Both the position numbers and the translations under genes were made by a program. From positions 1,271,237 to 1,335,236 of the forward strand of contig JAHCID010000001.1 in assembly GCA_026129405.1 (NCBI GenBank): DNA of 64,000 nucleotides. Direction: 5' to 3'. Shown piece after piece: positions 3,115 to 26,006 of this stretch. The first letter of the stretch is position 1; each line of letters begins with the position of its first letter. The DNA comes from a bacterium. Its GTDB lineage: Bacteria > Desulfobacterota > Binatia > DP-6. Below the pieces are notes generated by a model that saw only the letters and a program-made list of their open reading frames with translations, was not told where the DNA came from and ran no database searches.

Positions 3115-3918
3115 ATGGAAGCCGACTCCCTCCTCGTCACTCGGGACGGGCCGGTGGTGACGCTCACCATCAACCGGCCCGAGCAGCGCAACCCGCTCGG
3201 CGAGCCCGGCGACGGCGACCGCTTCGCCGCCGCGGCTGCCCGCATCAACGCCGACCGTGAGGTCCGCTGCGTGGTCCTCACCGGCGCGGGCTCCGCCTTC
3301 TCCGCCGGCGGCAACCTGAAGGCGATGCGCGATCGCGGCGGGCCGTTCGCAGGGCCGGGCGTCCACGTCCGCGACGGCTACCGCCACAACATCCACCGCA
3401 TGGTGCGGGCGCTGTGGACGCTCGAGGTGCCGATGATCGCGGCCGTGAACGGGCCCGCCATCGGCCTCGGCAACGACGTCGCCTGTCTCGCCGACACGCG
3501 CATCGCCGCCGAGTCGGCGGTCTTCGGCGCGACCTTCCTGCGCGTCGGCCTGGTGCCCGGCGACGGCGGCGCCTGGCTGCTGCCGCGGGTGCTCGGCATG
3601 GCACGGGCCGCCGAGCTGCTCTACACGGCCGACACCATCGACGCCGAGACGGCGCTCGCGTGGGGCCTCGTCAGCCGGGTCGTGCCGGGCGAGATACTGA
3701 TGGGCGAGGCCCGGGCGCTCGCCGCCCGCATCTGCCGCCAGCCGCCCGACGTGCTGCGCATGACGAAGCGCCTGCTGCGCGAGGGCGTGACCCAGACGTT
3801 CGACGCGATCATGGAGCTGTCGGCGTCGATGCAGGCGCTGGCCCACCACACCGAGGACCATCGCGAGGCCGTCGCGGCGTTCTTCGAGAAGCGCGAGCCC
3901 CGCTTCCAGGGCCGCTGA
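3115..3918 (+). CDS. Enoyl-CoA hydratase/isomerase (crotonase) family protein
   Basis: A 267-aa cytoplasmic crotonase, normal length. The oxyanion-hole segments are visible: SAGGNLKAM near residue 63 and NGPAIGLGNDVA near residue 112. At the two positions where hydratases carry catalytic Glu, this protein shows Asp (GLGNDVACLAD) and a non-acidic residue, while LVPGDGGAWLLPR replaces the usual PGAGG loop. So hydratase activity on simple enoyl-CoAs should not be assumed; a variant crotonase (isomerase, hydrolase or branched substrate) is possible. A thiolase follows 114 bases downstream on the same strand, consistent with beta-oxidation. Start chosen at the ATG just before EADSLLV. Confidence 0.85.
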   Translation: MEADSLLVTRDGPVVTLTINRPEQRNPLGEPGDGDRFAAAAARINADREVRCVVLTGAGSAFSAGGNLKAMRDRGGPFAGPGVHVRDGYRHNIHRMVRALWTLEVPMIAAVNGPAIGLGNDVACLADTRIAAESAVFGATFLRVGLVPGDGGAWLLPRVLGMARAAELLYTADTIDAETALAWGLVSRVVPGEILMGEARALAARICRQPPDVLRMTKRLLREGVTQTFDAIMELSASMQALAHHTEDHREAVAAFFEKREPRFQGR

Positions 3919-3939
3919 GCGGCCGCCCGCGTTGCTTTC

Positions 3940-3957
3940 CCCGGCCGAGCGGCCGGG
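3940..3957 (+). terminator. Short GC hairpin between crotonase and thiolase genes
   Basis: CCCGGCC and GGCCGGG pair around GAGC, 22 bases after the crotonase stop. A T-poor tail makes termination uncertain. Confidence 0.35.
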
Positions 3958-4032
3958 CTAACCAGGAGGACCGGTCCCGTTCCGGAGGCCGGCCGCGTCC
4001 GCCATCCATCATGAGTCTGCGAGGAGATCCCC

Positions 4033-5223
4033 ATGCGTGAAGCTGTCATCGTCGGCGCCGTTCGCACCCCGCTGGGCCGCGGCAAGCACACCGGAGCCCT
4101 CCACCCCGTCCATGCCGTCGACCTGGCGGCGCACTCGCTGAAAGCGCTCGTCGAACGGACCGGGATCGACCCGGCCGTGATCGAGGACGTCATCATGGGG
4201 TGCGTCGGGCAGGTGGGCGAGCAGGGCATCAACGTCGCGCGCAACGCCGCGCTGGCCGCCGGCTTCCCGGAGACGGTGTGCGGGACCAGCGTCGACCGGC
4301 AATGCGGCTCCAGCCAGCAGTCGCTGCACTTCGCGGCCCAGGGCGTGATCGCCGGCGCCTACGACGCCGTCATCGCCGCCGGCGTCGAGTCGATGAGCCG
4401 CATCCCGATGGGGACCAGCGTCGCCGCCGGCGGCCAGCCCTTCGGGCCGACGATGCGCCGTCGCTACGAAGAGGCGAACCTCTACGACGCGCACGGCCTC
4501 GTGCACCAGGGCATGTCGGCCGAGATCATCGCCGCGAAGTGGAAGCTGCCGCGCACCGAGCTCGACGCCTTCTCCGTCGGCTCGCACCAGAAGGCGGCGG
4601 CCGCGGCGCGCAACGGCTGGTTCGACGCCGAGATCGCACCGATCGAGGTGCGGCGCGAGGACGGCTCGCGCGACACCATCACGCACGACGAGGGCGTGCG
4701 CGCCGACGCGTCGCCCGAGAAGCTGGCGTCGCTCCAGCCGGCGTTCAAACCCGACGGCGTCATCACCGCCGGCAACTCGAGCCAGATCACCGACGGCTCG
4801 GCCGCCGTCCTCGTGATGGAGAAGGAGAAAGCCAAGGCCCTCGGCCTGCGTCCCCGCGCCCGCTTCCACGCCTTCGCCCTCGGCGGCGTCGATCCGGTGA
4901 TCATGCTCTCCGCGCCGATCCCGGCCACGAAGCACGCGCTCGAACGCGGCAGGATGAAGCTGCGCGACGTCGACCTGGTCGAGATCAACGAGGCATTTGC
5001 GCCCGTCGTGCTCGCCTGGCAGCGCGAGCTCGATCCCGACATGGACCGCGTCAACCCGAGCGGCGGCGCCATCGCGCTCGGGCATCCGCTCGGCTGCAGC
5101 GGCGCCCGCCTCATGACCACGCTGCTCCACAACCTCGAGCGCACCGGCGGCCGCTTCGGCCTGCAGACGATGTGCGAGGGCGGCGGCATGGCCAACGCCA
5201 CGATCATCGAGCGCCTCGACTGA
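4033..5223 (+). CDS. Acetyl-CoA C-acyltransferase (thiolase)
   Basis: A 396-aa thiolase that would cleave 3-ketoacyl-CoA with CoA, the last step of beta-oxidation. The nucleophile Cys lies in VDRQCGSSQQ at about residue 91. The catalytic His is in GGAIALGHPLGCSGAR and the second Cys in MCEGGGMAN. Length and motif order are those of degradative thiolases (FadA/PcaF type). An in-frame ATG follows a GAGGAG ribosome site at 4020. It sits between a crotonase and a YkgJ-type protein and close to acyl-CoA dehydrogenase and carboxylase genes, so it probably serves fatty or branched acyl-CoA breakdown. Chain-length preference is not visible. Confidence 0.92.
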   Translation: MREAVIVGAVRTPLGRGKHTGALHPVHAVDLAAHSLKALVERTGIDPAVIEDVIMGCVGQVGEQGINVARNAALAAGFPETVCGTSVDRQCGSSQQSLHFAAQGVIAGAYDAVIAAGVESMSRIPMGTSVAAGGQPFGPTMRRRYEEANLYDAHGLVHQGMSAEIIAAKWKLPRTELDAFSVGSHQKAAAAARNGWFDAEIAPIEVRREDGSRDTITHDEGVRADASPEKLASLQPAFKPDGVITAGNSSQITDGSAAVLVMEKEKAKALGLRPRARFHAFALGGVDPVIMLSAPIPATKHALERGRMKLRDVDLVEINEAFAPVVLAWQRELDPDMDRVNPSGGAIALGHPLGCSGARLMTTLLHNLERTGGRFGLQTMCEGGGMANATIIERLD

Positions 5224-5302: not shown

Positions 5303-5914
5303 ATGGCGGAGCGGGATTGGCGGCGGTTGCTCTCCTTCAAGTGCTCGGGCTGCGGCAACTGCTGCCGCGGCACCTTCGTCCCGGTCACCGACGGCGACGT
5401 CCGGCGCATGCTCGAGGGCACCGGGCGCCCGGTCACCGAGCTGGTACGGCTCGTGAAGCTCGGCGACATCCGAATGGACAAGCGCCACGGCTGGTGGGCC
5501 AGGATCGGCGACACCAAGGCGGTCATGGCGCTGCCGTGGAAGCGCGGCCACTGCGCCTATCTCGACGCTCCGACCAACCGCTGCATGGTCTACGAGTCGC
5601 GGCCCCTCGTCTGTCGCTCGACGCCGCTCGAGGTGCACTTCACCGACAGCGGCGCGGTCGAGAAGCTCACGCGGCACCTCGTCACGTCGTGTCCGAACGA
5701 CTGGGAGAAGGGCAGCCAGTCGCTGCGGGCGCTGGCGGTGCTCGATCGGCTGCGCGACCGCGAGAGCGACGCCTACTGCGAGAAGGTCGCGGCCTGGAAC
5801 AAGCAGAAGGACGTGGCGCGCACGCCGGCGAACTTCTACGTCTGGCTCGGGCTCGCGCCGGCGGCGCGGCTGCGCCGGCCAGCCGCGCCGGCCCGGGCCG
5901 TGGCCGCGCGCTGA
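5303..5914 (+). CDS. YkgJ-family cysteine-cluster protein
   Basis: A 203-aa protein with the family's N-terminal CSGCGNCCRG (CxxCxxCC) and a later C..Y...P..CR pattern (CMVYESRPLVCRSTP), thought to bind zinc or an iron-sulfur centre. The biochemical role of this family is not established. The ATG at 5303 is preferred; a GTG at 5267 would add 12 residues and has no better site. The last 79 bases overlap, on the opposite strand, the end of the convergent monooxygenase gene. The Ala/Arg-rich C-terminal tail is therefore shared coding sequence and may not be functional. Confidence 0.8.
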   Translation: MAERDWRRLLSFKCSGCGNCCRGTFVPVTDGDVRRMLEGTGRPVTELVRLVKLGDIRMDKRHGWWARIGDTKAVMALPWKRGHCAYLDAPTNRCMVYESRPLVCRSTPLEVHFTDSGAVEKLTRHLVTSCPNDWEKGSQSLRALAVLDRLRDRESDAYCEKVAAWNKQKDVARTPANFYVWLGLAPAARLRRPAAPARAVAAR

Positions 5915-7182
5915 CGCCGGTCACGCGCCGCCGGCGTAGCCAGCGGCGGCGTCGCCAGGCGCGATCCGGCCGCCAGCTCGGCGGCGATCTGCGCCCCGGC
6001 CGCCCATCCGAAGCGGCCGAGGCCGGCTCCGCCGTTCAGTGACACCCCGAAGCTCGGAGCGAACAGCGTCGGCTCGACCGTCGAGCGTGTCTGCGCGTCG
6101 ATGCGCGGTGCGCGTCCGCCGGGGCGCGGGCCGAGCAGGCGTGCATGGTCGGGCAGCAGCGGCTCGAGGCGCGGCGCGAAGCCGGTGGCGAACAGCACCG
6201 CGTCGTAGTGCGTCTCGCCGTCGCCGAGCCGCACGCCGTGCGCGGTGAAGCCGCGCAGGGGGCGCGCGGTGCCGTCGACGACGCCGATGCGCTCCTCGCC
6301 GATGGCGCGCGCGGTGCCGCGGTCGAAGACGGGCACGCGGCCCCGCGTGAGCATTTCCGTGAAGGGGCCTGCCGCGGGCCGCCGGATCCCGTAGCGCGAC
6401 AGATCGAGCCCGATGCGGCCGGCGAGGCGGTCGCGCTGCCGGACGACGCGTGCGAAGGGCGGCGTCCCCGGAGCGACGCGTTGAAAACGATCGAGCGCCC
6501 GCGGCGACGACATGCCGAGCAGACGGGAGACCAGGAACAGCGCGGTCATGCGAGAGCGCGGCAGGAAGTGGCGCGGCCCGCGTACCCAGAGATCGACGGC
6601 ACGGGCGCCGTGGTCGACGAGATCGAGCGCGATCTCGGCCGCGGAGTTGCCGCTGCCGACGACCAGCACGCGCTGCCCGGCGAAGGGCAGCGCGTTGCGA
6701 TAGCGTGCCGCGTGCAGCACGTGGCCGCGGAAGGCCGGACGGTCGGGCACCTCCGGCATCGTCGGCTCGCGGTTCATCGCCGTGGCCAGCACGACGTAGC
6801 GTGCGTGGTAGGCAGTCTGCGCCGTTTCGACGATCCAGCCGTCGGCCGCGGGCGCCCGGGCGATGCGCATCGCCGTGTCGCCGCAGCGCACGCGCGCGTG
6901 TAGGCGGAAGCGGTGTGCGTAGGCGTCGAGGTAGTGCAGCACCTCGTCGCGCGACTTGTACATCGGATACCGGCGCACGAGGCCGCCGTCCTCGGGCAGA
7001 TCGTGCCACGGCGAGTGCAGGTGGAGGCGATCGTAGACGCCGGTCCAGAATGCGCCCACGTTCCAGCCGCGCTCGATCACGACGAAGCGGCGCACGCCGA
7101 ACCGGCGCAGGGCGGCGGCGGTCCCGAGCCCGGCGAACCCGGCGCCGACGATCACGACGTCCATCGGCTCGGCGGCGGTCAT
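5836..7182 (-). CDS. Flavin-containing monooxygenase (FMO/YUCCA-like)
   Basis: A 448-aa FAD- and NADPH-dependent oxygenase. The FAD site GAGFAGLG is near residue 12, the NADPH site GSGNSAAE is mid-protein, the family signature FxGxxxHxxxY is present (FRGHVLHAARY), and FATGFAP stands near residue 340. These define class B flavoprotein monooxygenases that oxygenate N, S or carbonyl carbon. The substrate is unknown. The start at 7182 overlaps the stop of a small membrane ORF (ATGA), and both lie behind a Fur-box-like site, which suggests iron-controlled expression, perhaps for siderophore or metallophore tailoring; that is inference. The 3' end overlaps the YkgJ gene by 79 bases and codes an odd Arg/Ala tail. 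Confidence 0.85.
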   Translation of the reverse strand: MTAAEPMDVVIVGAGFAGLGTAAALRRFGVRRFVVIERGWNVGAFWTGVYDRLHLHSPWHDLPEDGGLVRRYPMYKSRDEVLHYLDAYAHRFRLHARVRCGDTAMRIARAPAADGWIVETAQTAYHARYVVLATAMNREPTMPEVPDRPAFRGHVLHAARYRNALPFAGQRVLVVGSGNSAAEIALDLVDHGARAVDLWVRGPRHFLPRSRMTALFLVSRLLGMSSPRALDRFQRVAPGTPPFARVVRQRDRLAGRIGLDLSRYGIRRPAAGPFTEMLTRGRVPVFDRGTARAIGEERIGVVDGTARPLRGFTAHGVRLGDGETHYDAVLFATGFAPRLEPLLPDHARLLGPRPGGRAPRIDAQTRSTVEPTLFAPSFGVSLNGGAGLGRFGWAAGAQIAAELAAGSRLATPPLATPAARDRRQRAATARAGAAGRRSRAAGASPSQT

Positions 7183-7409
7183 CCGCCCGCCCGCGTGCGG
7201 CGCGTCGCCGTAGTGGGGCGGCCGCCGCGCGGTGGTGGTGGCGGGGGGGCGGTGCGTAGGGTTCGCAGTCCGCTCCAGGCGAGCGCGCCGACGACGGCGG
7301 TTCCGGCCGCCAGCACGACCGCCACGGGGGTGCTCCAGAGGGTCTCTTCGGGCCTCCCGGCAAGCAGCGGAACCACGCTGATGGAAGGAGGTAACACAGC
7401 GCCGAACAT
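7179..7409 (-). CDS. Small single-pass membrane protein with poly-Pro tail
   Basis: A 76-aa ORF with one hydrophobic helix (TPVAVVLAAGTAVVGALAW) followed by a Pro-rich, Arg/Thr-rich tail. No family recognised. An AGGAG lies 8 bases before the ATG, a clearer ribosome site than most here, and the stop overlaps the monooxygenase start, so the pair should be co-translated. A Fur-like site lies about 50 bases upstream. It may anchor or assist the monooxygenase, or be a small iron-stress protein. Confidence 0.55.
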   Translation of the reverse strand: MFGAVLPPSISVVPLLAGRPEETLWSTPVAVVLAAGTAVVGALAWSGLRTLRTAPPPPPPRGGRPTTATRRTRAGG

Positions 7410-9815: not shown

Positions 9816-9870
9816 GCAGGTGGGTGCTGCGGGTGGCACGACCGGACGCCTCGGGTTAAGACCCCGGCCC

Positions 9871-11016
9871 ATGTCCGCCGACATCTACGGCACCCCCGAG
9901 CACGAGGCCTTTCGCAAGACCGTCCGCCGCTTCGTCCAGGAGCAGCTCGTCCCGCGTGCACGCGAGTTCGACGAGCGCGGCCGCATCGACAAGGCGCTCT
10001 TCGGAACGATGGGCGAGCTCGGAATGCTCGGGCTGCGCTACGATCCGAAGTGGGGCGGCTCCGGGCTCGACTGGAGCTACACGACGGTGATGTTCGAGGA
10101 GGTCGGGCGTTGCGACAACGCCGGCGTCGCCATGGGCATCACGGTGCAGACCGACATGGCCACGCCCTCGCTGCATCAGTTCGGCACGGACGAGCTGCGC
10201 CGGAAGTACCTCGTGCCCGCGATCAAGGGCGAGATGGTGGCGGCGATCGCCGTCACCGAGCCCGACGCCGGCTCCGACGTCGCCGGCATCAAGACCCGCG
10301 CCGTGCGCGACGGCGACCACTGGGTCATCAACGGCAGCAAGATCTACATCACCAACGCCGCGACCGCGGACTGGATGTGTCTGCTGGCGGTGAACGATCC
10401 CGACGCCGGCTACGGCGGCTTCTCGCAGATCGTCGTGCCGACCGACACCAAGGGCATCAGCTACCGGCTGCTCGACAAGATCGGCAACTGGGGCTCGGAC
10501 ACCGGCCAGTTCTTCTTCGAGGACGTGCGCGTCCCCGTCTCGAACACGATCGGCGACATCGGCCGCGGCTTCCAGCAGCAGATGATGCAGTTCCAGGACG
10601 AGCGCCTCGTCGCCTGCGTCAGCAGCCTCGCCGGCTCCGAGCAGCTCTGGGACGAGACCAAGGCGTGGTGCGATCAGCGGGTACTGTTCAACAAGCCGCT
10701 CTCGAAGATGCAGGTGACGCAGTTCAAGTTCGTCGAGATGCTGGCGCAGATCGCCTCGGCGAAGGCGCTCACGCACGAGTGCGTGCGCAAGCGCGTCCGC
10801 GGCGAGGACGCCACCAAGGAGATCTCGCTCGCGAAGCTCGTCTGCGGCCGCACCGTGCGCGCCGTCGCCGATCAGTGCATCCAGCTGCACGGCGGCTTCG
10901 GCTACATGAAGGAGAGCGCCGCCGGGCGCGCCTTCGTCGACACCCGCCTCATCTCCATCGGCGGCGGGGCGGACGAGGTGATGATGCAGTACGTGGCGAA
11001 GATGGTGGGGTTCTAA
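9871..11016 (+). CDS. Acyl-CoA dehydrogenase, citronellyl-CoA dehydrogenase (AtuD)-like
   Basis: A 381-aa FAD enzyme that would insert a 2,3 double bond into acyl-CoA. Family motifs are TEPDAGSDVAGIKT (residues 124-137), the CIQLHGGFGYM flavin-loop and ISIGGGADEVMMQ near the C-terminus, whose Glu is the catalytic base in the usual place. The GGGADEVM ending is the form I associate with AtuD/LiuA-like branched-acyl dehydrogenases rather than FadE. Start ATG at 9871 is preferred to 9820, which would add a Gly/Arg-rich leader. The end overlaps the convergent diiron-protein gene by 4 bases. The electron acceptor (ETF) is not encoded here. Confidence 0.88.
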   Translation: MSADIYGTPEHEAFRKTVRRFVQEQLVPRAREFDERGRIDKALFGTMGELGMLGLRYDPKWGGSGLDWSYTTVMFEEVGRCDNAGVAMGITVQTDMATPSLHQFGTDELRRKYLVPAIKGEMVAAIAVTEPDAGSDVAGIKTRAVRDGDHWVINGSKIYITNAATADWMCLLAVNDPDAGYGGFSQIVVPTDTKGISYRLLDKIGNWGSDTGQFFFEDVRVPVSNTIGDIGRGFQQQMMQFQDERLVACVSSLAGSEQLWDETKAWCDQRVLFNKPLSKMQVTQFKFVEMLAQIASAKALTHECVRKRVRGEDATKEISLAKLVCGRTVRAVADQCIQLHGGFGYMKESAAGRAFVDTRLISIGGGADEVMMQYVAKMVGF

Positions 11017-13362: not shown

Positions 13363-14936
<1,574 letters not shown>

Positions 14937-14958
<22 letters not shown>

Positions 14959-16415
14959 GCCGGGGGGCCGGCCGGGCACGGGCGGTCCGGCCACGGCGGC
15001 CCGTTGCGGTCGCCGAGCGAGGTCACGACGGCGCGCCACGGACGCGGCGGCTCGCTCGCGGGCGCGAGCACCGTGCGCACCCGGTACGGCGCGCACAGGA
15101 ACAGCCGATGCGCCTCGCCGAGGTCGAACGTCAGGTGGTTCGCCCAGTTCTCCGGGATCACGACCTCGCGGACGTCCGCACGTCCCGCCGCCGCCGCGTC
15201 GATGGCGCGCAGCCAGCCCGCGGCGTCGCGCGCGCTGCCTTCGATGCCGCGGATCTCGGGCCCGAGGATCGTGGCCGGCAGGACGAAGCGTCCCTCGTAC
15301 GCGACGACGAGGAACGCGACGCCGAGCGAGGCCGCCGTCGCGAGCCGCCCCGGCAGCGCGGCGAGCGGGGCCGCCGCCGCCACCGCGAGCCCGAACGCGC
15401 CGATGCCGACGTAGGCCGACGCGAAGTGCTGCGGCAGGAACAGGACGGGGGCGATCCCCACCACGAAGGCGGCGACTCCGAAGGCGAGGAGGCGGAGCGC
15501 GCGGCCGCTCGCGGGGCGCACGAGGACGAGGGCGCCGAGCACCGTGGCGAGCGCGAGCACGATCGCCCCCAGCGCCCGCAGCGCCGGCGCCTCGGACGCC
15601 CACGGCCACAGCGCCGTGGCGGCGACCCGGGCGTAACGGCCGAGGCTCTCGAGCGTCGTCGCCGGGTCGAAGTCGAGGCCGTAGTGCTGCCAGAAGACGC
15701 TGGCGCCGACGGGATGGCGCGCCGGCAGGACCACGTGACCCCACCAGAGCTTCGCCGCCGTCACCGCGGCGACGAGCAGCCACGGCAGCCGCAGCGCACG
15801 CAGCGAGGCCGCGCACCGGTCGCGCGGCTCGACGAGCAGCGCGAGCAGGGTGAGCAGCGCCGGCAGCACGACGGCGTGCTCGCTGGCGAGCAGCCCGAGC
15901 CCGGTGGTCGCGAGCGCCGCGAGCCCACGCCGGTGCGGCGGTACCCGCAGCCACAGCCACACGCCGAGCAGCACGACCAGCGCCGCGCCGGTCATGGTGA
16001 AGTAGGCCAGCCAGCGCGCCGCCACCGTGTGTCCCGGAGCGGCCGTGTAGAAGAGCGCGCAAGCGAGCGCCGGGCCGTCGCCGCGCAGCAGCCGGCGGGC
16101 GATCGCCCAGACGAGGAGGGCGGCGAGGGCGTGCGCGGCCAGGTGCACGATCTGCCAACGCGTCGGATCGAGCCCAAAGAGCGCCTGCTGGACGCCGAAG
16201 TACGCGACCGTCGTGAGGGGGCGATACTGGAGCCAGCCGTGCGACGGCGCGAACACGTCGGCGAGGCCGCGCAGCTCGGCGACGTCGTGCAGCACCCAGA
16301 AGTCGTCGAGCGCGAAGAAGCGCCCGACGAAGATGCCGTGGGAGACCGTCTGGTAGCCGAGGAGGAGGACGGTCACGGCGACGAGCCACGCCCAGGGTCG
16401 CCGCCGCCGTTCCAC
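14937..16415 (-). CDS. Polytopic membrane protein, GT-C glycosyltransferase-like
   Basis: A 492-aa protein with about 10-11 hydrophobic helices. Right after the first helix comes [12 protein letters not shown], an acidic pair in the first outer loop as in GT-C/PMT-type glycosyltransferases that use polyprenyl-phosphate sugars. A soluble C-terminal part of about 90 residues follows the last helix ([17 protein letters not shown]). Which glycan or protein it modifies is not visible. It is convergent with the carboxylase gene and divergent from the following SDR gene. Confidence 0.65.
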
Positions 16416-16515
16416 GCGCCGCGAGGGGTAGACGTGCGCCCGCGGTCGGTCAAGCCGGTCGCGCCGCGCGGCGTGCGGCTTGACCGCGGCGACGGCGGCG
16501 GGCGAGACGCTCGCA

Positions 16516-17334
16516 ATGGATCATCGCGGGCGGGTCGTCGTCGTCACGGGAGCGTCGTCGGGCATCGGCCGGCAGGTGGCGCTCGACTTCGCGGCGCGCG
16601 GCGCCGACCTCGTGCTGGTCGCACGCCGGGCGGCGCTGCTGGACGACGTGGCCGCGGCGTGCCGGGCGCGCGGGGTGCGCATCGAGCCGCTGGCGCTCGA
16701 CGTCGCCGCGCCCGACGCTCCGGCGGCGATCGTCGGCGCCGCGGCGGCGCGGCTCGGCCGGCTCGACGTGCTCGTCAACAACGCCGGCATCTCGAAGCAC
16801 AAGCAGATCTACGCGGTGACGCCCGGCGACCTCGAGCAGACGATCGCCGTCAATCTGCTCGCGCCCATGCGGCTCACGCTGGCGGCGCTGCCCGCCATGC
16901 TGCGCCAGGGCGGCGGCTGCGTGGTGAACGTCTCGTCGGTCGCCGGCAAGCTGCCGCCGCCGCGCGAGTCGGTGTACGCCGCCTCGAAGTTCGGCCTGAC
17001 CGGGTTCACGGAGGGCCTCTGGCTCGACCTCCAGGGCTCCGGCGTGCACGCGGCGGTCATCCACGTCGGGCCGGTCGACACCGAGATATGGGAGAAGGTC
17101 GACGAGCCGGCGGCGTTTCAGGGCCGCAAGTGGCCGGCGTCGGCGGTGTCGGCGGCCGTGCTGCGGGCCGTCGAGGAGCGGCGGCACGAGATCTGGGTAC
17201 CCGGGCGCTACCGCTTCGCATGGCTCTTCCGCATCCTCATGCCTGGGGCGTTCCGCGCCGGCTCGGCCCGCTTCGACCCGGTGCCGCCCGAGGTGGTGGC
17301 GGCCGCGCGGGCGCGGGCCGGCGCGTTCGAGTGA
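16516..17334 (+). CDS. SDR-family oxidoreductase
   Basis: A 272-aa classical short-chain dehydrogenase with TGASSGIG (residues 12-19), NNAG near 92, the catalytic Ser (NVSSVAG) and YAASK. A moderately hydrophobic C-terminal stretch (FAWLFRILMPGAF) is seen in DhrX/retinol-dehydrogenase-like members and may touch the membrane. The start at 16516 gives MDHRGRVVV; the ATG at 16480 would add a weak 12-residue leader. It lies downstream of the carboxylase beta gene region and might be the hydroxyacyl or alcohol dehydrogenase of the catabolic block (AtuB/AtuG-like), but the evidence is positional. Confidence 0.85.
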   Translation: MDHRGRVVVVTGASSGIGRQVALDFAARGADLVLVARRAALLDDVAAACRARGVRIEPLALDVAAPDAPAAIVGAAAARLGRLDVLVNNAGISKHKQIYAVTPGDLEQTIAVNLLAPMRLTLAALPAMLRQGGGCVVNVSSVAGKLPPPRESVYAASKFGLTGFTEGLWLDLQGSGVHAAVIHVGPVDTEIWEKVDEPAAFQGRKWPASAVSAAVLRAVEERRHEIWVPGRYRFAWLFRILMPGAFRAGSARFDPVPPEVVAAARARAGAFE

Positions 17335-17382
17335 ATCCGGGACCGCCGCTATAGTCCAAGGGTCGGCTCGGAGCCGCGCCGC

Positions 17383-18852
17383 GTGAGACACCTACCGACC
17401 CTCACCGCCGTCGCCGTCTGGCTCGCGATGGCGGCGCTGCTGGTGGCCCGGCAGACGCCTGCCCCCGGGCTCGACGCCACGGGCCTCGCGGCGGCGCCGG
17501 TCGAGGCCGCGGGCGGGCGCGACGAGTGGTTCGGGCTCTACCAGGGCGTGCACAAGATCGGACACACGCGCCGGCAGACGACGCGGACCGACGACGGCTG
17601 GCGCTTCCGCGACGAGTCGACGTTCGTGCTCGCGATGCTGGGAACGCCCCAGCGCGTGACCACGACGCTCGACGCCGAGACCGACGCGGCCTTCGCCCTG
17701 CGCCGCTTCCGCTTCGTGCTGACCTCGCCCGCAGCGACCTTCGCCGCCACCGGCGAGAGCGACGGCCGGACCCTCGAGGCCCGCTACGGCGCCGAGGGCC
17801 GCGGCGAGACGCTGACCCTGCCGCTCGCCGAGCCGATCCATCTCCCCGGCATGCTCCGGCCGCGCATCGCGGCGGCGTCGCCGGCGCCCGGCACGCGCTA
17901 CGCGCACGAGGTGCTGAGCCCGATGACCCTGCGCAACGAGCCGGTGTCGACGCTGGTCGAGGCGCGCGAGGAGCTGGACGGACGCAGCGTGCTGCGCCTG
18001 GTCGAGGAGCACCAGGGCATGAAGGCGCGCGTCTGGGTCGCCGACGACGGCAGCGTCGTGCGCGAGGAGGCGCAGATGGGCTTCCAGCTGCGCGCCGAGC
18101 CGCGCGCGCAGGCGCTCGCCGGCATCGACGACGCCGCGCCGCTCGACATCGCCGTCTCCACCCGCATCCCGCTCCGCGGCACGGTGGCGGCGCCGCGTGA
18201 GCGGGCACGGCTCGTGCTGCGGGTCACGGGCGAGGCCGCGAGCCGCATCCCGCAGGCACCGCCGCGCCAGCGCATGGCCGCCGGCGTGCTCACCGTCGTG
18301 CGCGAGCCGCCGCCGGCCGAGGGCGCTCCGGCCGACGTCCCCGAGGTCGTGCGGCCGTGGCTGGCGGCGTCGCCGTTCATCGAGTCGGACCACCCGACGA
18401 TCGTGGCGCGGGCGCGGTCGATCGTCGGCGAGGAGACGGATGCCGTGCGGCAGGCGGCGCGGCTCGTCGGTTGGGTGCACACGCGCATGACGCCCGAGCC
18501 GACGATGACGGTGCCGAGCGCGCGCGAGGTGCTGCGCACCATGCGCGGCGACTGCAACGAGCACGCGGTGCTGCTCGCGGCGCTGGCGCGCGCCGCCGGC
18601 ATTCCGGCGCGCGTCGCCGCGGGGGCCGTCTATCTCGACGACGGCTTCTACTACCACGCCTGGACCGAGCTCTGGCTGTCCGGCCGCTGGATCAGCGCCG
18701 ACGCCGTCTTCGATCAGATGCCGGCCGACGCCACGCACGTGAAGCTGCTCGACGGCGGGCCCGAGCGCCATCTCGAGCTGGCGCAGGTGGTGGGCCGGCT
18801 CGCGTTCATCTCGGTCGACGACGTGACGCCGGCAGGGGAGGGGGCCTCGTGA
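17383..18852 (+). CDS. Membrane-anchored or secreted transglutaminase-like protein
   Basis: A 489-aa protein with an N-terminal hydrophobic helix (residues 6-23) and a long extracytoplasmic part. The C-terminal third has the transglutaminase/papain-like triad: Cys in RGDCNEHAVLL, His in YYHAWTEL and Asp in SADAVFDQ. Family members act as proteases or cross-linking enzymes on peptides. The GTG start follows the hallmark CGC-rich leader. Its TGA overlaps the GTG of an ABC ATPase (GTGA), so it is the first gene of a three-gene exporter operon; it may act on the exported material or on the transporter's partner. Confidence 0.8.
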   Translation: MRHLPTLTAVAVWLAMAALLVARQTPAPGLDATGLAAAPVEAAGGRDEWFGLYQGVHKIGHTRRQTTRTDDGWRFRDESTFVLAMLGTPQRVTTTLDAETDAAFALRRFRFVLTSPAATFAATGESDGRTLEARYGAEGRGETLTLPLAEPIHLPGMLRPRIAAASPAPGTRYAHEVLSPMTLRNEPVSTLVEAREELDGRSVLRLVEEHQGMKARVWVADDGSVVREEAQMGFQLRAEPRAQALAGIDDAAPLDIAVSTRIPLRGTVAAPRERARLVLRVTGEAASRIPQAPPRQRMAAGVLTVVREPPPAEGAPADVPEVVRPWLAASPFIESDHPTIVARARSIVGEETDAVRQAARLVGWVHTRMTPEPTMTVPSAREVLRTMRGDCNEHAVLLAALARAAGIPARVAAGAVYLDDGFYYHAWTELWLSGRWISADAVFDQMPADATHVKLLDGGPERHLELAQVVGRLAFISVDDVTPAGEGAS

Positions 18853-19616
18853 TCCGCTTCGACGGTCTCGTGAAACGCTACGGCGCGCTCGTCGCCGTCG
18901 ACGACCTGCGCTGCGACGTCGGCGCGGGCGAGGTCTTCGGCTTCCTCGGCCGCAACGGCGCCGGCAAGACGACGACGATCCGCATGATGATGGGCCTGCT
19001 CGAGCCCACGGCGGGCACGGTGCTGCTCGGCGGGCACGACATCCGGCGCGCGCCCGAGGCCGCGAAGGCGATCACCGGCTATCTGCCCGACCGGCCGCAT
19101 CTCTACGACAAGCTGACGGGTGCCGAGCTGCTGCGCTTCGTCGGCGGCCTCTACGGCCTCGGCGCCGCCGAGGCGGCGCGGCGCGGCGACGCGTTGCTCG
19201 AGGAATTCGCCCTGGTCGCGCAGGCGGGCGAGCTGGTCGAGACGTTCTCGCACGGCATGAAGCAGCGCCTTGCGCTGGCGGCGGCGCTGATCCACCGGCC
19301 GCGCATCCTCGTCCTCGACGAGCCGATGGTCGGCCTCGATCCCGAGGGCGCGCTCGAGCTGCGTCGCCGCCTCGGCCGGCTCTCCGGCGAGGGCGTGACG
19401 ATCTTCCTCTCCACGCACAGCCTCGCCGTCGCCGAGGAGCTGTGCAGCCGCATCGCGATTCTCGACCACGGCCGGCTGGTGGCGCTCGGCACGCTCGCCG
19501 AGCTGCGGGCGCGCGCCGCGGCCGAGGCCGGCCGTGCGCACGACCGCGGCGACGCGACGCTCGAAGCCGTGTTCCTGGACATCCTGCGTGCCCCGGTGCT
19601 GCGCGCGTCGGCATGA
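18849..19616 (+). CDS. ABC exporter ATP-binding protein
   Basis: A 255-aa ABC ATPase with Walker A GRNGAGKTTT, signature FSHGMKQR, Walker B ILVLDEPMVGLD and H-loop STHS. The FSHGMKQR form and the arrangement with a separate hydrophobic permease are those of ABC-2 type exporters. The GTG start overlaps the transglutaminase stop and the stop overlaps the permease start (ATGA), so the three genes are translated as a unit. The substrate is unknown. Confidence 0.88.
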   Translation: MIRFDGLVKRYGALVAVDDLRCDVGAGEVFGFLGRNGAGKTTTIRMMMGLLEPTAGTVLLGGHDIRRAPEAAKAITGYLPDRPHLYDKLTGAELLRFVGGLYGLGAAEAARRGDALLEEFALVAQAGELVETFSHGMKQRLALAAALIHRPRILVLDEPMVGLDPEGALELRRRLGRLSGEGVTIFLSTHSLAVAEELCSRIAILDHGRLVALGTLAELRARAAAEAGRAHDRGDATLEAVFLDILRAPVLRASA

Positions 19617-21304
19617 GCGTCCCCGGCACGCTGGCGCTGTGCGCGCCGCGCTGGCTCGCCGCGCGCAACGCCATGCGCGCGCATCCCTGGCGGGCCGTGG
19701 TCCTGCTGGGGGCCACCGCCGGATTCTGGATCGCGTGCTTCGTCGTGTGCGTGCGCGTCCTGGGCTACTTCCACACCCTGGGCGACTTCGGCCCGCTGCT
19801 GACGCAGCGCCTGTTGGTCCTGCTCTTCCTCTCGTTCCTGGGCGTGCTCCTCGTCAGCAATACGGTGACGGCGCTGACGACGTTCTACCTCTCGGGCGAC
19901 GTCGTGCCGCTGCTCGCGGCGCCGCTCCCGTGGCGGCGCCTGCACCACGCGCGCTTCCTCGAGACCCTGATCGCGTCGTCGTGGATGGTGCTGCTGGTCG
20001 GGTTGCCCGCGCTGATCGCATACGGCGTGGTCTACGGTGCCGGGCCGACGTTCTACCTCGCCGCGCTGGCCGTGCTGGCGCTGTTCCTCGTCATCCCCGC
20101 GGCGATCGGCGTCCTGGTGACGACGGCGCTCGTGCTGGTGTTCCCGGCGCGCGGCGCCCGCGACGCGCTGCTCATCGCCTCCGGGCTGCTGCTCGCCGGT
20201 GCGGTCGTCGCCATCCGGCTGCTCGAGCCCGAGCGGCTGGCGCATCCGTCGGGACTGGTCGGGCTCGCGGCCTTCCTGGCAGGCGCCGGCAGCGCCGGGT
20301 CGCCGTGGTTCCCGAGCACGTGGGCGGCCGAGGTGCTGCTGCCGCTGCTCGGCGCGCGCGACGGGACGCCGCTCTTCTTCCTCGGCATGCTGGCGAGCAC
20401 GGCCGTGATGCTCTTCCTCGTGAGCGCCACCGTCGTCGAGCTCGGCTTCCTGCGCGCGTGGTCGGCGGCGCAGACGGGCCGCGTGCGCGCCGGCAGCGCC
20501 GAGCGCCCGCTCGGCCGCGTCCTGGCCGTGCTGGTGCGCCCGCTGCCGCGCCTCTTCGGGCTGGTGCTCGCGAAGGACGCGACCGTGTTCCTGCGCGACC
20601 CGAGCCAGTGGTCGCAGCTGCTGCTCCTCTGCGCGCTGGTCGGCATCTACCTCTTCAACTTCTCCGCGCTGCCGCTCGAGGGCGACACGCCGCTCGCGAT
20701 CGCGATGCGCGAGATGGCGACCGTGCTGAACCTCGGGCTCGGCGCGTTCGTCACCACCGCCGTCGCCGTGCGCTTCGTCTACCCGATGCCGAGCATGGAG
20801 GGGCACGCGTGGTGGATCCTGCGCACCGCGCCGGTCGGGCTCGCGAAGCTCTGGTGGAGCAAGTTCTGGCTCGGCTGGCTGCCGCTCGTCGGCTTCGCGG
20901 CGGCGCTGGTGGCGACGACGAACGCGCTGCTCGGCGTGCCGGGGGTGGTGACGGTCGCGTTCCTGCTGACGCTGCCCTCGATGCTCGCCGCGATCGTGAG
21001 CCTCGGGCTGGCGTTCGGCGCGGTGCACGCGAAGCTCGACACGCGCAACGCGGCCCAGATCGCCACCGGCTTCGGGGCGATCGTCTACATGCTGTCCTGT
21101 CTCGGCGTCATCGCCGGCGTCGTCGCGCTCGAGGCCTGGCCGGTGGGCCGCCTGCTGCGCGCCGTGCGCCACGGCGGCACGCCGGCGCCCGCAGACCTCG
21201 CGATCATGACGGCGGGACTCGTCCTGGCGACGGTCGCCGCCCTGGCGGTCTTCGAGGGGGCGCGGCGGCGCGGGCTGCGGGCCCTGGCCCGCCTCCCGAT
21301 CTGA
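19613..21304 (+). CDS. ABC-2-type exporter permease
   Basis: A 563-aa membrane protein with at least 12 predicted hydrophobic helices and no other domain. It follows the ATPase with a 4-base overlap and forms the membrane half of the exporter. Charged loops (RVRAGSAERPLG) separate two groups of helices, suggesting a fused or duplicated permease. The operon sits between the catabolic carboxylase genes but its job need not be related. No family-specific motif was found, so the substrate is open. Confidence 0.8.
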   Translation: MSVPGTLALCAPRWLAARNAMRAHPWRAVVLLGATAGFWIACFVVCVRVLGYFHTLGDFGPLLTQRLLVLLFLSFLGVLLVSNTVTALTTFYLSGDVVPLLAAPLPWRRLHHARFLETLIASSWMVLLVGLPALIAYGVVYGAGPTFYLAALAVLALFLVIPAAIGVLVTTALVLVFPARGARDALLIASGLLLAGAVVAIRLLEPERLAHPSGLVGLAAFLAGAGSAGSPWFPSTWAAEVLLPLLGARDGTPLFFLGMLASTAVMLFLVSATVVELGFLRAWSAAQTGRVRAGSAERPLGRVLAVLVRPLPRLFGLVLAKDATVFLRDPSQWSQLLLLCALVGIYLFNFSALPLEGDTPLAIAMREMATVLNLGLGAFVTTAVAVRFVYPMPSMEGHAWWILRTAPVGLAKLWWSKFWLGWLPLVGFAAALVATTNALLGVPGVVTVAFLLTLPSMLAAIVSLGLAFGAVHAKLDTRNAAQIATGFGAIVYMLSCLGVIAGVVALEAWPVGRLLRAVRHGGTPAPADLAIMTAGLVLATVAALAVFEGARRRGLRALARLPI

Positions 21305-21350: not shown

Positions 21351-23342
21351 GTGCCGCCCGTCACCAAGGTCCTGGTCGCGAACCGGGGCGAGATCGCCCG
21401 CCGCGTGCTGCGCACGCTGCGCGCCATGGGCATCGCGGGCGTCGCCGTGTACTCCGACGCCGACGCCGGTGCGCCGCACGTCGCCGAGGCCGACGAGGCC
21501 GTCCGCATCGGCCCGGCACCGGCGCGCGAGTCGTATCTCGTCGCCGACCGCCTCCTCGACGCCGCCCGGCGTACCGGCGCCGACGCCGTCCACCCCGGCT
21601 ACGGCTTTCTCGCCGAGAACGCCGACTTCGCCCAGGCCTGCGCCGACACGGGCCTGACCTTCATCGGGCCGACGCCCGCCGCCATCCGCGCCATGGGCAG
21701 CAAGATCGAGGCGAAGCGCATCATGGCCAAGGCCGGCGTGCCGGTGGTGCCCGGCGCCGAGGGCGACGACGCCGCGCTCGTGAAGGCGGCGGCGACCGTC
21801 GGCTTCCCCGTCCTCGTGAAGGCCTCGGCCGGCGGCGGAGGCAAGGGCATGCGCGTCGTCCGTGCGGCCGACGCGCTGCCCGCGGCGCTCGCGGCCGCGC
21901 GGCGCGAGGCCGAGCACGCGTTCGGCGACGGGACGCTGCTCCTCGAGCGCTACGTCGATTCCCCGCGGCACGTCGAGGTGCAGATCTTCGGCGACGCGCA
22001 CGGCACGGCGATCCATCTCTTCGAGCGCGAGTGCTCGATCCAGCGCCGGCACCAGAAGGTGCTGGAGGAGGCGCCGTCGCCCGCGGTCGACGCCGCGCTG
22101 CGCGCGCGGCTCGGCGAGGCGGCGGTGACGGCGGCGCGCGCCATCGGCTACGTCGGCGCGGGGACCGTCGAGTTCATCCTGGCGCCCGACGGCGCGTTCT
22201 ACTTCCTCGAGGTGAACACGCGCCTCCAGGTCGAGCATCCGGTCACCGAGTGCGTCACCGGGCTCGACCTCGTCCGCCTGCAGATCGAGGTGGCGCGCGG
22301 CGAGCCGCTGCGCGTGCGGCCCGAGACGCTGCGGATCGACGGCCACGCGATCGAGGCGCGCCTCTACGCCGAGGACGCGGCGCACGACTTCCTGCCGGCG
22401 AGCGGCCGCGTGACGCTGTGGTCGGCGCCCGACGTGCCGGGCGTGCGCTGGGACGTCGGCGTCGCGGTCGGCTCCGAGGTCGGCGTCCACTACGACCCGA
22501 TGCTGGCGAAGGTGATCGCGCACGGCGCGGACCGCGCCGAGGCGATCGCGCGGCTCGAGGCGGCGCTGCGCCGGCTCGGTGTCGCCGGGCTGACGACCAA
22601 CCGCGACTTCCTGCTCGCGGTTCTGCGCCATTCCGCATTCGCGGCGGGCGCGCTCGACACGCACTTCGTCGAGCGGCACCTGCCGCCGGCGGCGCGGACC
22701 GCCGCGTCCGATCCGACGGTCGTGCGCACGCACGCCATCGTCGCCACGCTCGAGGGTCATGCGCGCCGCCGCGACGCCGCAGCGAGCCCCGTGCCGCCGA
22801 GCGTGCCGTCGGGCTGGCGCAACAACCGCTGGCGGCCGCAGCGCGTCGAGTGGCGCGTGGGCGGTGACGAGATCGCGGTGCAGTACGTCGTCGGCGGCGA
22901 CGGTACCGTCGGGGTCGAAGCAGGCGAGCTGCGCGGGCGCGCCGCCGTGGTCGCGCGCGACGCGGGCGGCCTCGTCGTCGAGCTGGACGGCCTGCGGCGG
23001 CGCTACGAGACGGCCGCCTCGGGCGACGTCACCGTCGTGCACTCGCTGCTCGGGACCACCGAGCTGCGCGAGCTGCCCGTGTTCCCCGCCGCGCGGGCCG
23101 AGGAGGTCGCCGGCGGCTGCGTCGCGCCGATGACCGGCGTCGTGCGCGCGGTACACGTCGCCGCCGGCGAGCGGGTGACGCGCGGCCAGGTGCTGCTCGT
23201 GCTCGAGGCCATGAAGATGGAGCACGAGATGGCGGCCCACGCCGACGGCGTCGTGCGCGAGGTGCGCGTCGAGGTCGGGCAGATGGTCGATCCCGACGCG
23301 GTGCTGGTGATCGTCGAGGCCGACCCCGCCCTCGAGGCCTGA
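21351..23342 (+). CDS. Acyl-CoA carboxylase alpha subunit (biotin carboxylase + BCCP), MccA/AtuF-like
   Basis: A 663-aa biotin-dependent carboxylase subunit. The biotin carboxylase domain (about 1-450) shows KVLVANRGEIARR, HPGYGFLAEN, the ATP-grasp loop KASAGGGGKGMR and FLEVNTRLQVEHPVTE. A linker domain follows, and the C-terminal biotinyl domain has EAMKMEHEM with the biotin-accepting Lys at about residue 622. It carboxylates biotin with ATP and bicarbonate for the beta subunit encoded at 13363. Together they match MCC or geranyl-CoA carboxylase rather than ACC. The GTG start is supported by the family N-terminus. Followed by an AtuE-like crotonase and AtuA. Confidence 0.93.
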   Translation: MPPVTKVLVANRGEIARRVLRTLRAMGIAGVAVYSDADAGAPHVAEADEAVRIGPAPARESYLVADRLLDAARRTGADAVHPGYGFLAENADFAQACADTGLTFIGPTPAAIRAMGSKIEAKRIMAKAGVPVVPGAEGDDAALVKAAATVGFPVLVKASAGGGGKGMRVVRAADALPAALAAARREAEHAFGDGTLLLERYVDSPRHVEVQIFGDAHGTAIHLFERECSIQRRHQKVLEEAPSPAVDAALRARLGEAAVTAARAIGYVGAGTVEFILAPDGAFYFLEVNTRLQVEHPVTECVTGLDLVRLQIEVARGEPLRVRPETLRIDGHAIEARLYAEDAAHDFLPASGRVTLWSAPDVPGVRWDVGVAVGSEVGVHYDPMLAKVIAHGADRAEAIARLEAALRRLGVAGLTTNRDFLLAVLRHSAFAAGALDTHFVERHLPPAARTAASDPTVVRTHAIVATLEGHARRRDAAASPVPPSVPSGWRNNRWRPQRVEWRVGGDEIAVQYVVGGDGTVGVEAGELRGRAAVVARDAGGLVVELDGLRRRYETAASGDVTVVHSLLGTTELRELPVFPAARAEEVAGGCVAPMTGVVRAVHVAAGERVTRGQVLLVLEAMKMEHEMAAHADGVVREVRVEVGQMVDPDAVLVIVEADPALEA

Positions 23343-23393
23343 GCGGCCGGACCGGCGTTGCCGGGACGGGCACCGGCGTGCTTCAACCCGGCG

Positions 23394-24179
23394 ATGTCGA
23401 CCTCCGAGCCCGTTCCCCAGACCGTCACCCGCTACGACGTCCACGGGCGCGCCGCCTGGATCACGCTCGCCGAGCCCGAGCGCCGCAACGCCCTCTCCGG
23501 ACCGATGGTCACGGAGCTGCTCGGGCACCTCGGGACGGCGATGGACGACCCGGCCGTCCGCGCCGTCGTGCTCACCGGGACGGGTCCGGCGTTCTGCGCC
23601 GGCGCCGATCTGAAGGGCGGCGGGGGCGGCGCCATCGGCGGCGGCGCGGAGAACCCGTTCGTGCGGGTGCTGCGCACCATGTGGGACGGGCCGAAGCCGG
23701 TGATCGTCGCCGCCAACGGCCATGCCTTCGGCGGCGGGCTCGGGCTGGTCGCGGCCGCGGACATCGCCATCGCGGCGGACGGGGCGATGTTCAGCTTCAG
23801 CGAGGTTCGCATCGGCGTCATCCCGGCGATGATCTCCGTCGTGGTGCTCCCGAAGATCGGTCCGCACCACGCGATGCGCCTCTTCCTCACGGGCGAGCGC
23901 TTCGACGCCTCGCGGGCCCGCGACTACGGGCTGCTGCATCGGGTCGTGGCCATCGACCGGCTGATGACGGCGGTGCAGGAGGAGGTCGATGCGATCGCGC
24001 TCGGCGGCCCCATCGCGGTGGGGGAGGCGAAGCGGCTGGTGCGCACGGTCCCGCGGATGCGGATGGACGAGGCCTTCGCCTGGACCGAGGCGCGCATCGC
24101 CGAGCTGTTCGCGTCGCCGGAGGCCGCCGAGGGCATGGCGGCGTTCGCCCAGAAGCGCAAGCCGGCGTGGGCCGAGTGA
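23394..24179 (+). CDS. Enoyl-CoA hydratase, methylglutaconyl/isohexenylglutaconyl-CoA hydratase-like (AtuE/LiuC-like)
   Basis: A 261-aa crotonase. The oxyanion segments are FCAGADLKGGGG near residue 66 and ANGHAFGGGLGLVAAAD near 108. The FSEVRIGVIPAMIS stretch carries the acid residue and is the form found in the glutaconyl-CoA hydratases of leucine and acyclic terpene catabolism, distinct from the first crotonase in this window. It would add water to a 3-carboxymethyl-enoyl-CoA made by the carboxylase. It lies 51 bases after the alpha subunit and 51 before the AtuA-like gene, so the three form a probable operon. Confidence 0.86.
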   Translation: MSTSEPVPQTVTRYDVHGRAAWITLAEPERRNALSGPMVTELLGHLGTAMDDPAVRAVVLTGTGPAFCAGADLKGGGGGAIGGGAENPFVRVLRTMWDGPKPVIVAANGHAFGGGLGLVAAADIAIAADGAMFSFSEVRIGVIPAMISVVVLPKIGPHHAMRLFLTGERFDASRARDYGLLHRVVAIDRLMTAVQEEVDAIALGGPIAVGEAKRLVRTVPRMRMDEAFAWTEARIAELFASPEAAEGMAAFAQKRKPAWAE

Positions 24180-24230
24180 GGTCGAGGCCGTTGACCCCCG
24201 GCGTCCCGGGCGCCTAAGACCAGCCTCCCC

Positions 24231-26006
24231 ATGGCCGACGTGCTGCGCATCGCAAACTGTAGCGGCTTCTATGGCGACCGCCTGAGCGCGGCGCGCGAGA
24301 TGGTGGAGGGCGGCCCGATCGACGTCCTCACCGGCGACTACCTCGCCGAGCTGACGTTGATGATCCTGCTGAAGGATCGGCTGCGCGACCCGTCGCTCGG
24401 CTGGGCGCGCACGTTCCTGCGCCAGCTGGAGGAGGTCGCGGCGACCTGCAAGGCGCGCGGCATCCGCATCGTCGTCAACGCGGGCGGCCTGAACCCCGGC
24501 GGCTGTGCCGACGCCGTGCGGGCGCTCTACCGCAAGCTCGGCCTCGACGCCGTGGTCGCGCACGTCGAAGGCGACGACCTCATGCCGAAGCTCGCCGCGC
24601 TCCAGGCGCGCGGCGAGCCGCTCGCGCACCTCGATCGCGGCACGTCGCTCGCGGAGCTGCGTTCGCCGGTGCTCTCGGCCAACGCGTATCTCGGCGGCTG
24701 GGGGATCGCCGAGGCGCTCGGGCGCGGCGCCGACGTCGTGATCTGCGGCCGCGTCACCGACGCCGCGCTCACCGTCGGCCCGGCGGCATGGCGCTTCGAC
24801 TGGAAGCGCGACGACTGGGATCGGCTCGCCGGCGCCGTCGTCGCCGGACACGTCATCGAGTGCGGCGCGCAGTGCACCGGCGGCAACTACAGCTTCTTCC
24901 GCGAGGTCCCCGACCTGCGCCATGCGGGCTTCCCGATCGCCGAGATGCACGCGGACGGCAGCTTCGTCGTGACCAAGCACGAGGGGACGGGTGGGCTCGT
25001 CAGCGTCGGTACGGTCACGGCCCAGCTGCTCTACGAGATCCAGGGCCTCGACTACCCGAACCCCGACGTCACCGCGCGCTTCGACACCATCCGGCTCGCG
25101 CAGGAAGGCCCCGACCGCGTGCGCGTCTCCGGCGTGCGCGGCACGCCGCCGCCGCCGACCACGAAGGTCTGCATCAACTACCCCGGCGGCTACAAGAACA
25201 GCATGACGTTCGTGCTGACCGGGCTCGACGTCGAGGAGAAGGCGCGGCTCGCGGAGGAGACGCTGTGGGCGGCCGTGGGCGGGCGCGAGCAGTTCGCCGA
25301 AACGCGCGTGTCGCTGTCGCGCGCGGATCGGCCGGATCCGGCGAGCAACGAAGCCGCCTTCGCGTATCTCACCATCGCGGTGAAGGATCCCGACGCGGCG
25401 AAGGTCAGCCGCGCGGCGTTCTCGAACCACGTCGTCGAGATGGCGCTCGCGAGCTATCCCGGGTTCTTCATGACGACGCTGCCGCAGGGCGAGTCGCAGA
25501 TCGGCGTGTACTGGCCGGCGCTGGTGCCGTCGACGGACGTGGAGCAGGTCGTCGTGCTCGGCGACGAGCGCGTCCCGATCGCGCCCGTGCTGCCGCCCGA
25601 TCGCCACGCCGCGCCGCCGCCGGCCGCGGCACCGGCGGGCGACGTGCCGGCAGGCCCGACGCGCGACGTTCCGCTCGGCACCATCTGCGGCGCGCGCTCG
25701 GGCGACAAGGGCGGCAACGCGAACGTCGGCCTCTGGGTGCGCAGCGAGCCCGCCTACCGCTGGCTCGCCGGGTACCTGACGGCCGATCGACTTCGCGAGC
25801 TGCTGCCGGAGGCGCGCGGGCTCGCCGTCGAGCGCTACGCGCTGCCGAACCTGCTGGCGCTGAACTTCATCGTGAAGGGGTTGCTCGGCGATGGCGTCGC
25901 CGCGTCGTTGCGTGTCGATCCGCAGGCGAAGAGCCTCGGCGAGTACGTGCGCGCGCGCGTCGTGCCGATCCCCGTCGTGCTGCTCGAGGCGCTGCCGCCC
26001 CGTTGA
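24231..26006 (+). CDS. AtuA-like acyclic terpene utilisation protein (DUF1446 type)
   Basis: A 591-aa cytoplasmic protein matching the AtuA family: N-terminal [39 protein letters not shown], the [14 protein letters not shown] loop, and [11 protein letters not shown]. The C-terminal domain of about 110 residues starts at [20 protein letters not shown], normal for full-length AtuA. AtuA is needed for growth on citronellol or geraniol, and its enzymatic step is not firmly established. The gene ends the carboxylase alpha-hydratase-AtuA operon. Its presence is the strongest hint that this carboxylase is of the geranyl-CoA or related branched type. Confidence 0.88.

What the first reader, a model, noticed from the sequence alone, without database searches (positions are those of the whole stretch)
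3115..26006. A dispersed Atu-like acyl-CoA carboxylation cluster
Homologues of atuC/mccB (13363), atuD-like dehydrogenase (9871), atuE-like hydratase (23394), atuF/mccA (21351) and atuA (24231) occur with two SDRs, another crotonase and a thiolase. In Pseudomonas aeruginosa the atu genes form one compact cluster for citronellol/geraniol use; here they are spread over 23 kb and broken by an exporter, glycosyltransferase-like and exported-protein genes. AtuA plus an MCC-type carboxylase is the diagnostic pair. A branched-chain (methylcrotonyl, geranyl or an unknown substrate) pathway with a different architecture is possible.
Basis: partly seen in the sequence, partly recalled or inferred. Interest (0 to 1): 0.75.

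Follow-up and report, generated by a model that had tools for sequence, protein, structure and literature searches.

The report
Split gene set removing acyl-CoA methyl branches
These bacterial genes most likely encode a pathway that removes a methyl side-branch from fatty-acid-like molecules such as plant terpenes; the key enzyme has the roomy pocket of geranyl-CoA carboxylase rather than that of the leucine-degrading enzyme, and the lyase partner AtuA has the fold of a known acetate-releasing enzyme.

Summary
The reported genes are present at the stated coordinates. The conserved core is ACAD 9820-11016, carboxyltransferase (CT) 13363-14958, biotin carboxylase/carrier 21351-23342, crotonase 23358-24179 and AtuA 24231-26006. 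Several same-class relatives have compact CT-BC-(ECH)-AtuA operons, so the 16-kb spread is a local rearrangement. The intervening exporter, transglutaminase, SDR and glycosyltransferase-like genes, and the distal crotonase/thiolase, are not conserved with the core. With a PCC outgroup it falls on the geranyl-CoA carboxylase (GCC) side, in a clade distinct from Pseudomonas AtuC. It meets both published GCC pocket criteria (no 3-residue insertion; Gly for MCC's Phe). All 86 AtuA-linked CTs examined lack that Phe; 35 of 38 unlinked ones keep it. The alpha-subunit tree is unresolved. No HMG-CoA lyase was found in the genome. AtuA's main domain has the citramalate lyase subunit A fold (Z 30.8), supporting the long-guessed acetate-lyase role. 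Best reading: an Atu-type pathway removing the beta-methyl branch from acyl-CoAs larger than methylcrotonyl-CoA. The substrate is unknown.

The parts
9820..11016 (+). acyl-CoA dehydrogenase (AtuD-like role): makes the alpha,beta-unsaturated acyl-CoA
   Evidence: PF00441/PF02770/PF02771; close orthologues (65-81% identity) in 30 of 58 genomes searched (own included), all 30 of which have AtuA, and in none of the 20 without AtuA; directly next to CT in G015, G041, G038, G057 and next to ECH2-AtuA in G001, G005
13363..14958 (+). carboxyltransferase (beta) subunit, GCC-type pocket, third clade between AtuC and MCC
   Evidence: PF01039; tree and AU test; pocket motif FVP---GG as in GCC beta 5ikl FVE---GA versus PDREHFG in MCC
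21351..23342 (+). biotin carboxylase / BT / biotin carrier (alpha) subunit
   Evidence: PF00289, PF02786, PF02785, PF21139, PF00364; AMKM biotin site; deep placement unresolved
23358..24179 (+). crotonase-family hydratase (AtuE-like role)
   Evidence: PF00378; 61-73% orthologue next to AtuA or BC in close relatives
24231..26006 (+). AtuA: predicted 3-hydroxy-3-alkylglutaryl-CoA:acetate lyase, CmlA-like domain plus C-terminal ferredoxin-like domain
   Evidence: PF07287 and PF23544; AlphaFold2 model pLDDT 93.2; matches citramalate lyase 9evf, Z 30.8 over 407 residues; profile match to the CmlA family 98.7%
3115..3918 (+). second crotonase; not shown to belong to the core
   Evidence: NF006699 above cut-off; no orthologue linked to the core in close relatives
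4033..5223 (+). thiolase; not shown to belong to the core, could still supply the last step
   Evidence: PF00108/PF02803; orthologues of 73-81% in relatives lie 36 kb or more from AtuA or on other contigs
14937..21304 (.). insertion between CT and BC: membrane protein (-), SDR (+), transglutaminase (+), ABC exporter ATPase and permease (+)
   Evidence: none found between CT and BC/AtuA in G044, G031, G018, where other genes intervene

Best explanation
The five core genes encode an Atu-type route that removes a beta-methyl (beta-alkyl) branch from an acyl-CoA so that beta-oxidation can go on. The ACAD makes a 3-methyl-2-enoyl-CoA; the biotin carboxylase/carboxyltransferase carboxylates the gamma methyl group; the crotonase adds water to give a 3-hydroxy-3-alkylglutaryl-CoA; AtuA splits it into free acetate and a 3-oxoacyl-CoA, which a thiolase can cut. 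The CT pocket is of the open GCC type, so the substrate is most likely larger than 3-methylcrotonyl-CoA, probably an isoprenoid-like acyl-CoA. Shown here: gene content, linkage in relatives, tree position, pocket residues, absence of a recognisable HMG-CoA lyase, AtuA fold. Inferred: the reactions, their order and the substrate.
For: CT: meets both GCC criteria of Jurado et al. 2015 (PMC4673880), namely Gly instead of the MCC Phe and no 3-residue insertion; the closest solved structure over the pocket segment is GCC beta 5ikl (119.7 bits against 93 for the next); placement inside MCC rejected, p-AU 0.002, with the pocket columns removed. Linkage: 86 of 86 AtuA-linked CTs lack the pocket Phe, 35 of 38 unlinked ones have it. 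AtuA: the single significant fold match is citramalate lyase 9evf/9erq, deposited as an AtuA family protein / citramalate lyase subunit A, an enzyme that cuts a tertiary beta-hydroxy acid and releases acetate (reaction). The genome's two HMGL-like proteins are 2-isopropylmalate synthase and citramalate synthase, so no HMG-CoA lyase is available. ACAD occurs only in genomes with AtuA, 30 of 30.
Against: The alpha subunit cannot be assigned. The CT is not an AtuC orthologue but a separate clade. The phylogenetically corrected test of the Phe/AtuA association has only two informative pairs and is not significant. Phylum-wide, 11 of 25 AtuA genomes also have an HMG-CoA lyase, so AtuA does not generally replace it. 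No acyl-CoA ligase or terpene alcohol/aldehyde gene was recognised in the interval, and substrate acceptance was not tested.
Confidence: 0.7

Rival explanations
1. It is a leucine/isovalerate (Liu) pathway: an ordinary methylcrotonyl-CoA carboxylase with AtuA standing in for HMG-CoA lyase.
For: No HMG-CoA lyase in the genome; GCC can also accept methylcrotonyl-CoA (paper); full-length best PDB score is MCC beta 3u9r.
Against: CT lies outside the MCC clade and lacks the Phe and insertion found in the MCC reference structures; the genome has a separate MCC-clade CT with the Phe motif on contig C9; no HMG-CoA lyase in the AtuA loci.
Confidence: 0.12
2. It is a true acyclic-terpene (citronellol/geraniol) pathway equivalent to the Pseudomonas atu cluster. 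This is a narrower form of the best explanation.
For: Same five functions, GCC-type pocket, AtuA; Thauera linaloolentis also has atu genes spread over 24 kb and uses them (PMC4847356).
Against: CT is a distinct clade from AtuC; crotonase scores far below the gamma-carboxygeranoyl-CoA hydratase cut-off (157.7 against 426); no AtuB/AtuG/AtuH counterpart shown; SDRs are generic.
Confidence: 0.25
3. The genes are neighbours by chance and do not form one pathway.
For: They are spread among unrelated genes.
Against: Compact CT-BC-(ECH)-AtuA operons in many relatives and phyla and strict ACAD/AtuA co-occurrence.
Confidence: 0.05

Closest known systems
Acyclic terpene utilisation (Atu) pathway of Pseudomonas aeruginosa/citronellolis
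   Same: AtuA family protein, two-subunit biotin carboxylase with GCC-type pocket, crotonase, ACAD
   Different: CT is a sister clade, not an AtuC orthologue; genes in three blocks; no AtuB, AtuG, AtuH or AtuR counterpart demonstrated
Leucine/isovalerate utilisation (Liu) pathway, methylcrotonyl-CoA carboxylase
   Same: Same chemistry of gamma-carboxylation and hydration, homologous subunits
   Different: Pocket Phe and 3-residue insertion absent; no HMG-CoA lyase found; AtuA instead
Citramalate lyase CmlA/CmlB (9erq, 9evf; E. coli glutamate fermentation cluster)
   Same: AtuA residues 1-445 share the CmlA fold, and profiles match; both would release acetate from a tertiary beta-hydroxy acid
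   Different: CmlA is followed by a separate small DUF4387 protein, whereas AtuA carries a C-terminal domain of similar size with no detectable sequence relation to it; substrate is a CoA ester here
AtuA/CT/BC operons of Rhodococcus, Mycolicibacterium, Dietzia and Tsukamurella plasmids
   Same: Same core; CT 57-63% and AtuA 50-58% identical
   Different: Compact, with AMP-binding/CoA ligases (Rhodococcus, Mycolicibacterium, Dietzia) and TIGR03084 (not Dietzia) alongside; substrates unknown

Membership tests
Geranyl-CoA carboxylase beta (AtuC) | Gly at the position of MCC Phe (pocket) | tested here: met
   FVPGG against PDREHFG; aligned without gaps to 5ikl
Geranyl-CoA carboxylase beta (AtuC) | no 3-residue insertion before that position | tested here: met
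Geranyl-CoA carboxylase beta (AtuC) | groups with AtuC in a tree | tested here: inconclusive
   same side as 5ikl when rooted with PCC (99/91; 99), but a separate clade from AtuC
Geranyl-CoA carboxylase beta (AtuC) | carboxylates geranyl-CoA | not testable with these tools
   needs an enzyme assay
Methylcrotonyl-CoA carboxylase beta (LiuB/MccB) | pocket Phe with 3-residue insertion | tested here: not met
Methylcrotonyl-CoA carboxylase beta (LiuB/MccB) | inside the MCC clade | tested here: not met
   p-AU 0.002
Liu pathway | HMG-CoA lyase (LiuE) present | tested here: not met
   only LeuA and CimA among HMGL-like proteins
AtuA family | PF07287 domain over full length | tested here: met
   residues 5-442, 574.9 bits
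Atu pathway | complete atuABCDEFGH set in one operon | tested here: not met
   core in three blocks; B, G, H counterparts not shown
Citramalate lyase CmlA | CmlA fold | tested here: met
   Z 30.8, 407 aligned, rmsd 3.8, 15% identity
Citramalate lyase CmlA | separate DUF4387 partner gene | tested here: not met
   C-terminal domain fused instead; no profile similarity to DUF4387

The most novel reading that the evidence does not exclude
The CT belongs to a large, apparently uncharacterised third subfamily of gamma-carboxylases that works with AtuA across deltaproteobacterial, actinobacterial, gammaproteobacterial and other lineages on a beta-branched substrate that is neither methylcrotonyl- nor geranyl-CoA, with AtuA acting as a nucleotide-linked acetate lyase of the citramalate lyase fold. 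AtuA-linked carboxylases inside the MCC clade appear to have lost the pocket Phe separately, so the open pocket would mark AtuA-coupled pathways in general.
Probability: 0.35. Interest if true: 0.65.

Novelty: new variant of a known kind. Interest (0 to 1): 0.48.

Why it matters
AtuA's step has long been a guess. A link to a solved acetate-releasing lyase, and a one-residue sequence mark that separates AtuA-coupled from other carboxylases, would let many genes now named methylcrotonyl- or propionyl-CoA carboxylase be re-annotated and the pathway tested with one deletion and two enzyme assays.

Tried and rejected
Alpha-subunit phylogeny: window BC sits with its class relatives, deeper position unsupported. 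AtuA replacing HMG-CoA lyase as a general rule: true in the nearest 58 genomes above the curated cut-off (two AtuA genomes score just under it), but false phylum-wide, 11 of 25 AtuA genomes having both. Independent-pairs test of Phe loss against AtuA linkage: too few informative pairs, p 0.5. AtuA C-terminal domain as a fused DUF4387/CmlB: no profile similarity. Flavin monooxygenase-like gene 5836-7491 as a Baeyer-Villiger partner, suggested by flavin oxidoreductases near the actinobacterial clusters: only weak ArsO-like scores, not pursued. No direct sequence match to a solved AtuA with a single sequence; with the profile the citramalate lyase entry came first but not significantly (E 0.072). 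Papers linking AtuA with Rhodococcus: none in the library.

Full report
Gene content. The window is 64 kb of contig C1 of a 5.63-Mb genome in 15 contigs, about 73% GC.

Core and periphery. Only five genes are supported as a unit: ACAD, CT, BC, ECH2 and AtuA. In relatives of the same class CT-BC-AtuA, often with a crotonase between BC and AtuA, are adjacent (G015, G051, G011, G036 and others); the ACAD stands directly before CT in G015, G041, G038 and G057 and before ECH2-AtuA in G001 and G005. The core is also split in other families of the class: in G044 and G031 CT lies 20-32 kb from AtuA on the same contig, and in G038 and G057 ACAD-CT is on another contig than AtuA. The genes filling the gap in the window are not those filling it in G044/G031/G018, so the dispersal looks like repeated local insertion rather than a functional super-cluster. 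The thiolase has close orthologues in relatives, but 36 kb or more from AtuA or on other contigs. The ACAD is found in 30 of 58 genomes, all 30 having AtuA, and in none of the 20 without AtuA; these genomes share ancestry, so the count is not a probability.

Carboxylase identity. Full length, the CT scores highest against Pseudomonas MCC beta (570.7 bits) and less against GCC beta (499.6), which alone would suggest MCC. The published criteria (Jurado et al. 2015, PMC4673880) are that MCC has a Phe in the pocket preceded by a 3-residue insertion, where GCC has Gly and no insertion. The window CT follows GCC on both, and over the pocket segment 5ikl is the best structure. In a maximum-likelihood tree with PCC as outgroup it falls with GCC beta (99/91) and away from an MCC clade (96/84) that holds Pseudomonas, human and mycobacterial MCC-type proteins, an Azospirillum LiuB beside HMG-CoA lyase, and the genome's own second CT. 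With the pocket columns removed and 133 rows the split stays (SH-aLRT 99). A 28-row careful tree shows three clades, AtuC-like, window-like and MCC-like; holding the window clade with MCC costs 26 log units, p-AU 0.002. So it is a sister kind of GCC, not an AtuC. The alpha subunit gives no firm answer.

Pocket and AtuA. The same site was read in CT genes from genome relatives, plasmids and 80 named AtuA loci. All 86 AtuA-linked rows (two are overlapping fetches of one gene) lack the Phe; 35 of 38 unlinked rows have it; the three exceptions come from genomes (G032, G008, G030) that carry AtuA elsewhere. Several AtuA-linked CTs sit inside the MCC clade with Gly or Ala at the site, e.g. HNGGRGF, DDGGRVF, YMAGRIF, suggesting separate losses. 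The tree needs five Phe changes; the strict independent-pairs test has too few pairs to be significant.

The lyase. HMGL-like proteins of the genome are LeuA (743.7 bits against a cut-off of 532) and CimA (692 against 450); no HMG-CoA lyase was found. AtuA was modelled from an alignment of 50 sequences (window plus loci; pLDDT 93.2, pTM 0.92). Foldseek gives one significant match, the citramalate lyase-ADP-pyruvate complex 9evf (E 2e-19); VIA-align 2 gives Z 30.8 over 407 residues at 3.8 A, far above the next (9.0). The same sequence is deposited as 'Acyclic terpene utilization AtuA family protein / Citramalate lyase, subunit A (cmlA)'. A profile comparison of AtuA residues 1-450 with eight CmlA-type proteins agrees (probability 98.7%, 238 columns), with shared AGG, GR-x-x-D-x-A, EC and LYE motifs. 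E. coli carries this gene after methylaspartate ammonia-lyase and before a small protein that matches DUF4387; a 2015 paper noted the DUF1446 gene there while the citramalate-cleaving enzyme was missing (PMC4682846). Citramalate cleavage to pyruvate and acetate is the same kind of reaction as that proposed for AtuA. A shared fold does not prove the reaction, and the role of the bound ADP in AtuA is unknown.

Spread. AtuA/CT/BC loci occur in actinobacterial, deltaproteobacterial, gammaproteobacterial (SAR86, Pseudomonadales), Chloroflexi, Planctomycete, Spirochaete and other records, and on Rhodococcus, Mycolicibacterium, Dietzia and Tsukamurella plasmids, of which the first three carry AMP-binding/CoA ligases nearby. 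Phylum-wide 25 of 247 genomes have AtuA, 77 an HMG-CoA lyase, 11 both.

Verdict. It is a variant of the Atu kind rather than a new kind of system.

Noticed in passing
L014 (own contig C9:45000-64000), 7711-10789: The genome's second, MCC-clade CT with pocket Phe lies next to a biotin carboxylase ORF of 494 aa without a biotinyl domain, among CP-ATP-grasp, Alpha-E, epimerase, acyltransferase and M20 peptidase genes, with no leucine genes recognised.
   Followed up: partly
window 11013-12032 (-): AurF/R2-like diiron protein with no recognisable solved homologue by sequence, convergent with the ACAD gene (the two overlap by 4 bases).
   Followed up: partly
window 5836-7491 (-): Flavin monooxygenase-like protein (weak ArsO-type scores) inside the interval; flavin oxidoreductases also flank the Mycolicibacterium and Dietzia AtuA clusters.
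   Followed up: partly
window 8970-9815 (+): Exported Cys-rich protein (CGPDGSPCDDGNPC...) with 33-36% similar proteins near the AtuA or CT blocks of G018, G024, G031, G037 and G044.
   Followed up: no
G009, G048, G054 (L083, L084, L239): A second, 40-46% identical AtuA type is linked to CTs of the MCC clade that keep the insertion but have Gly for Phe.
   Followed up: partly
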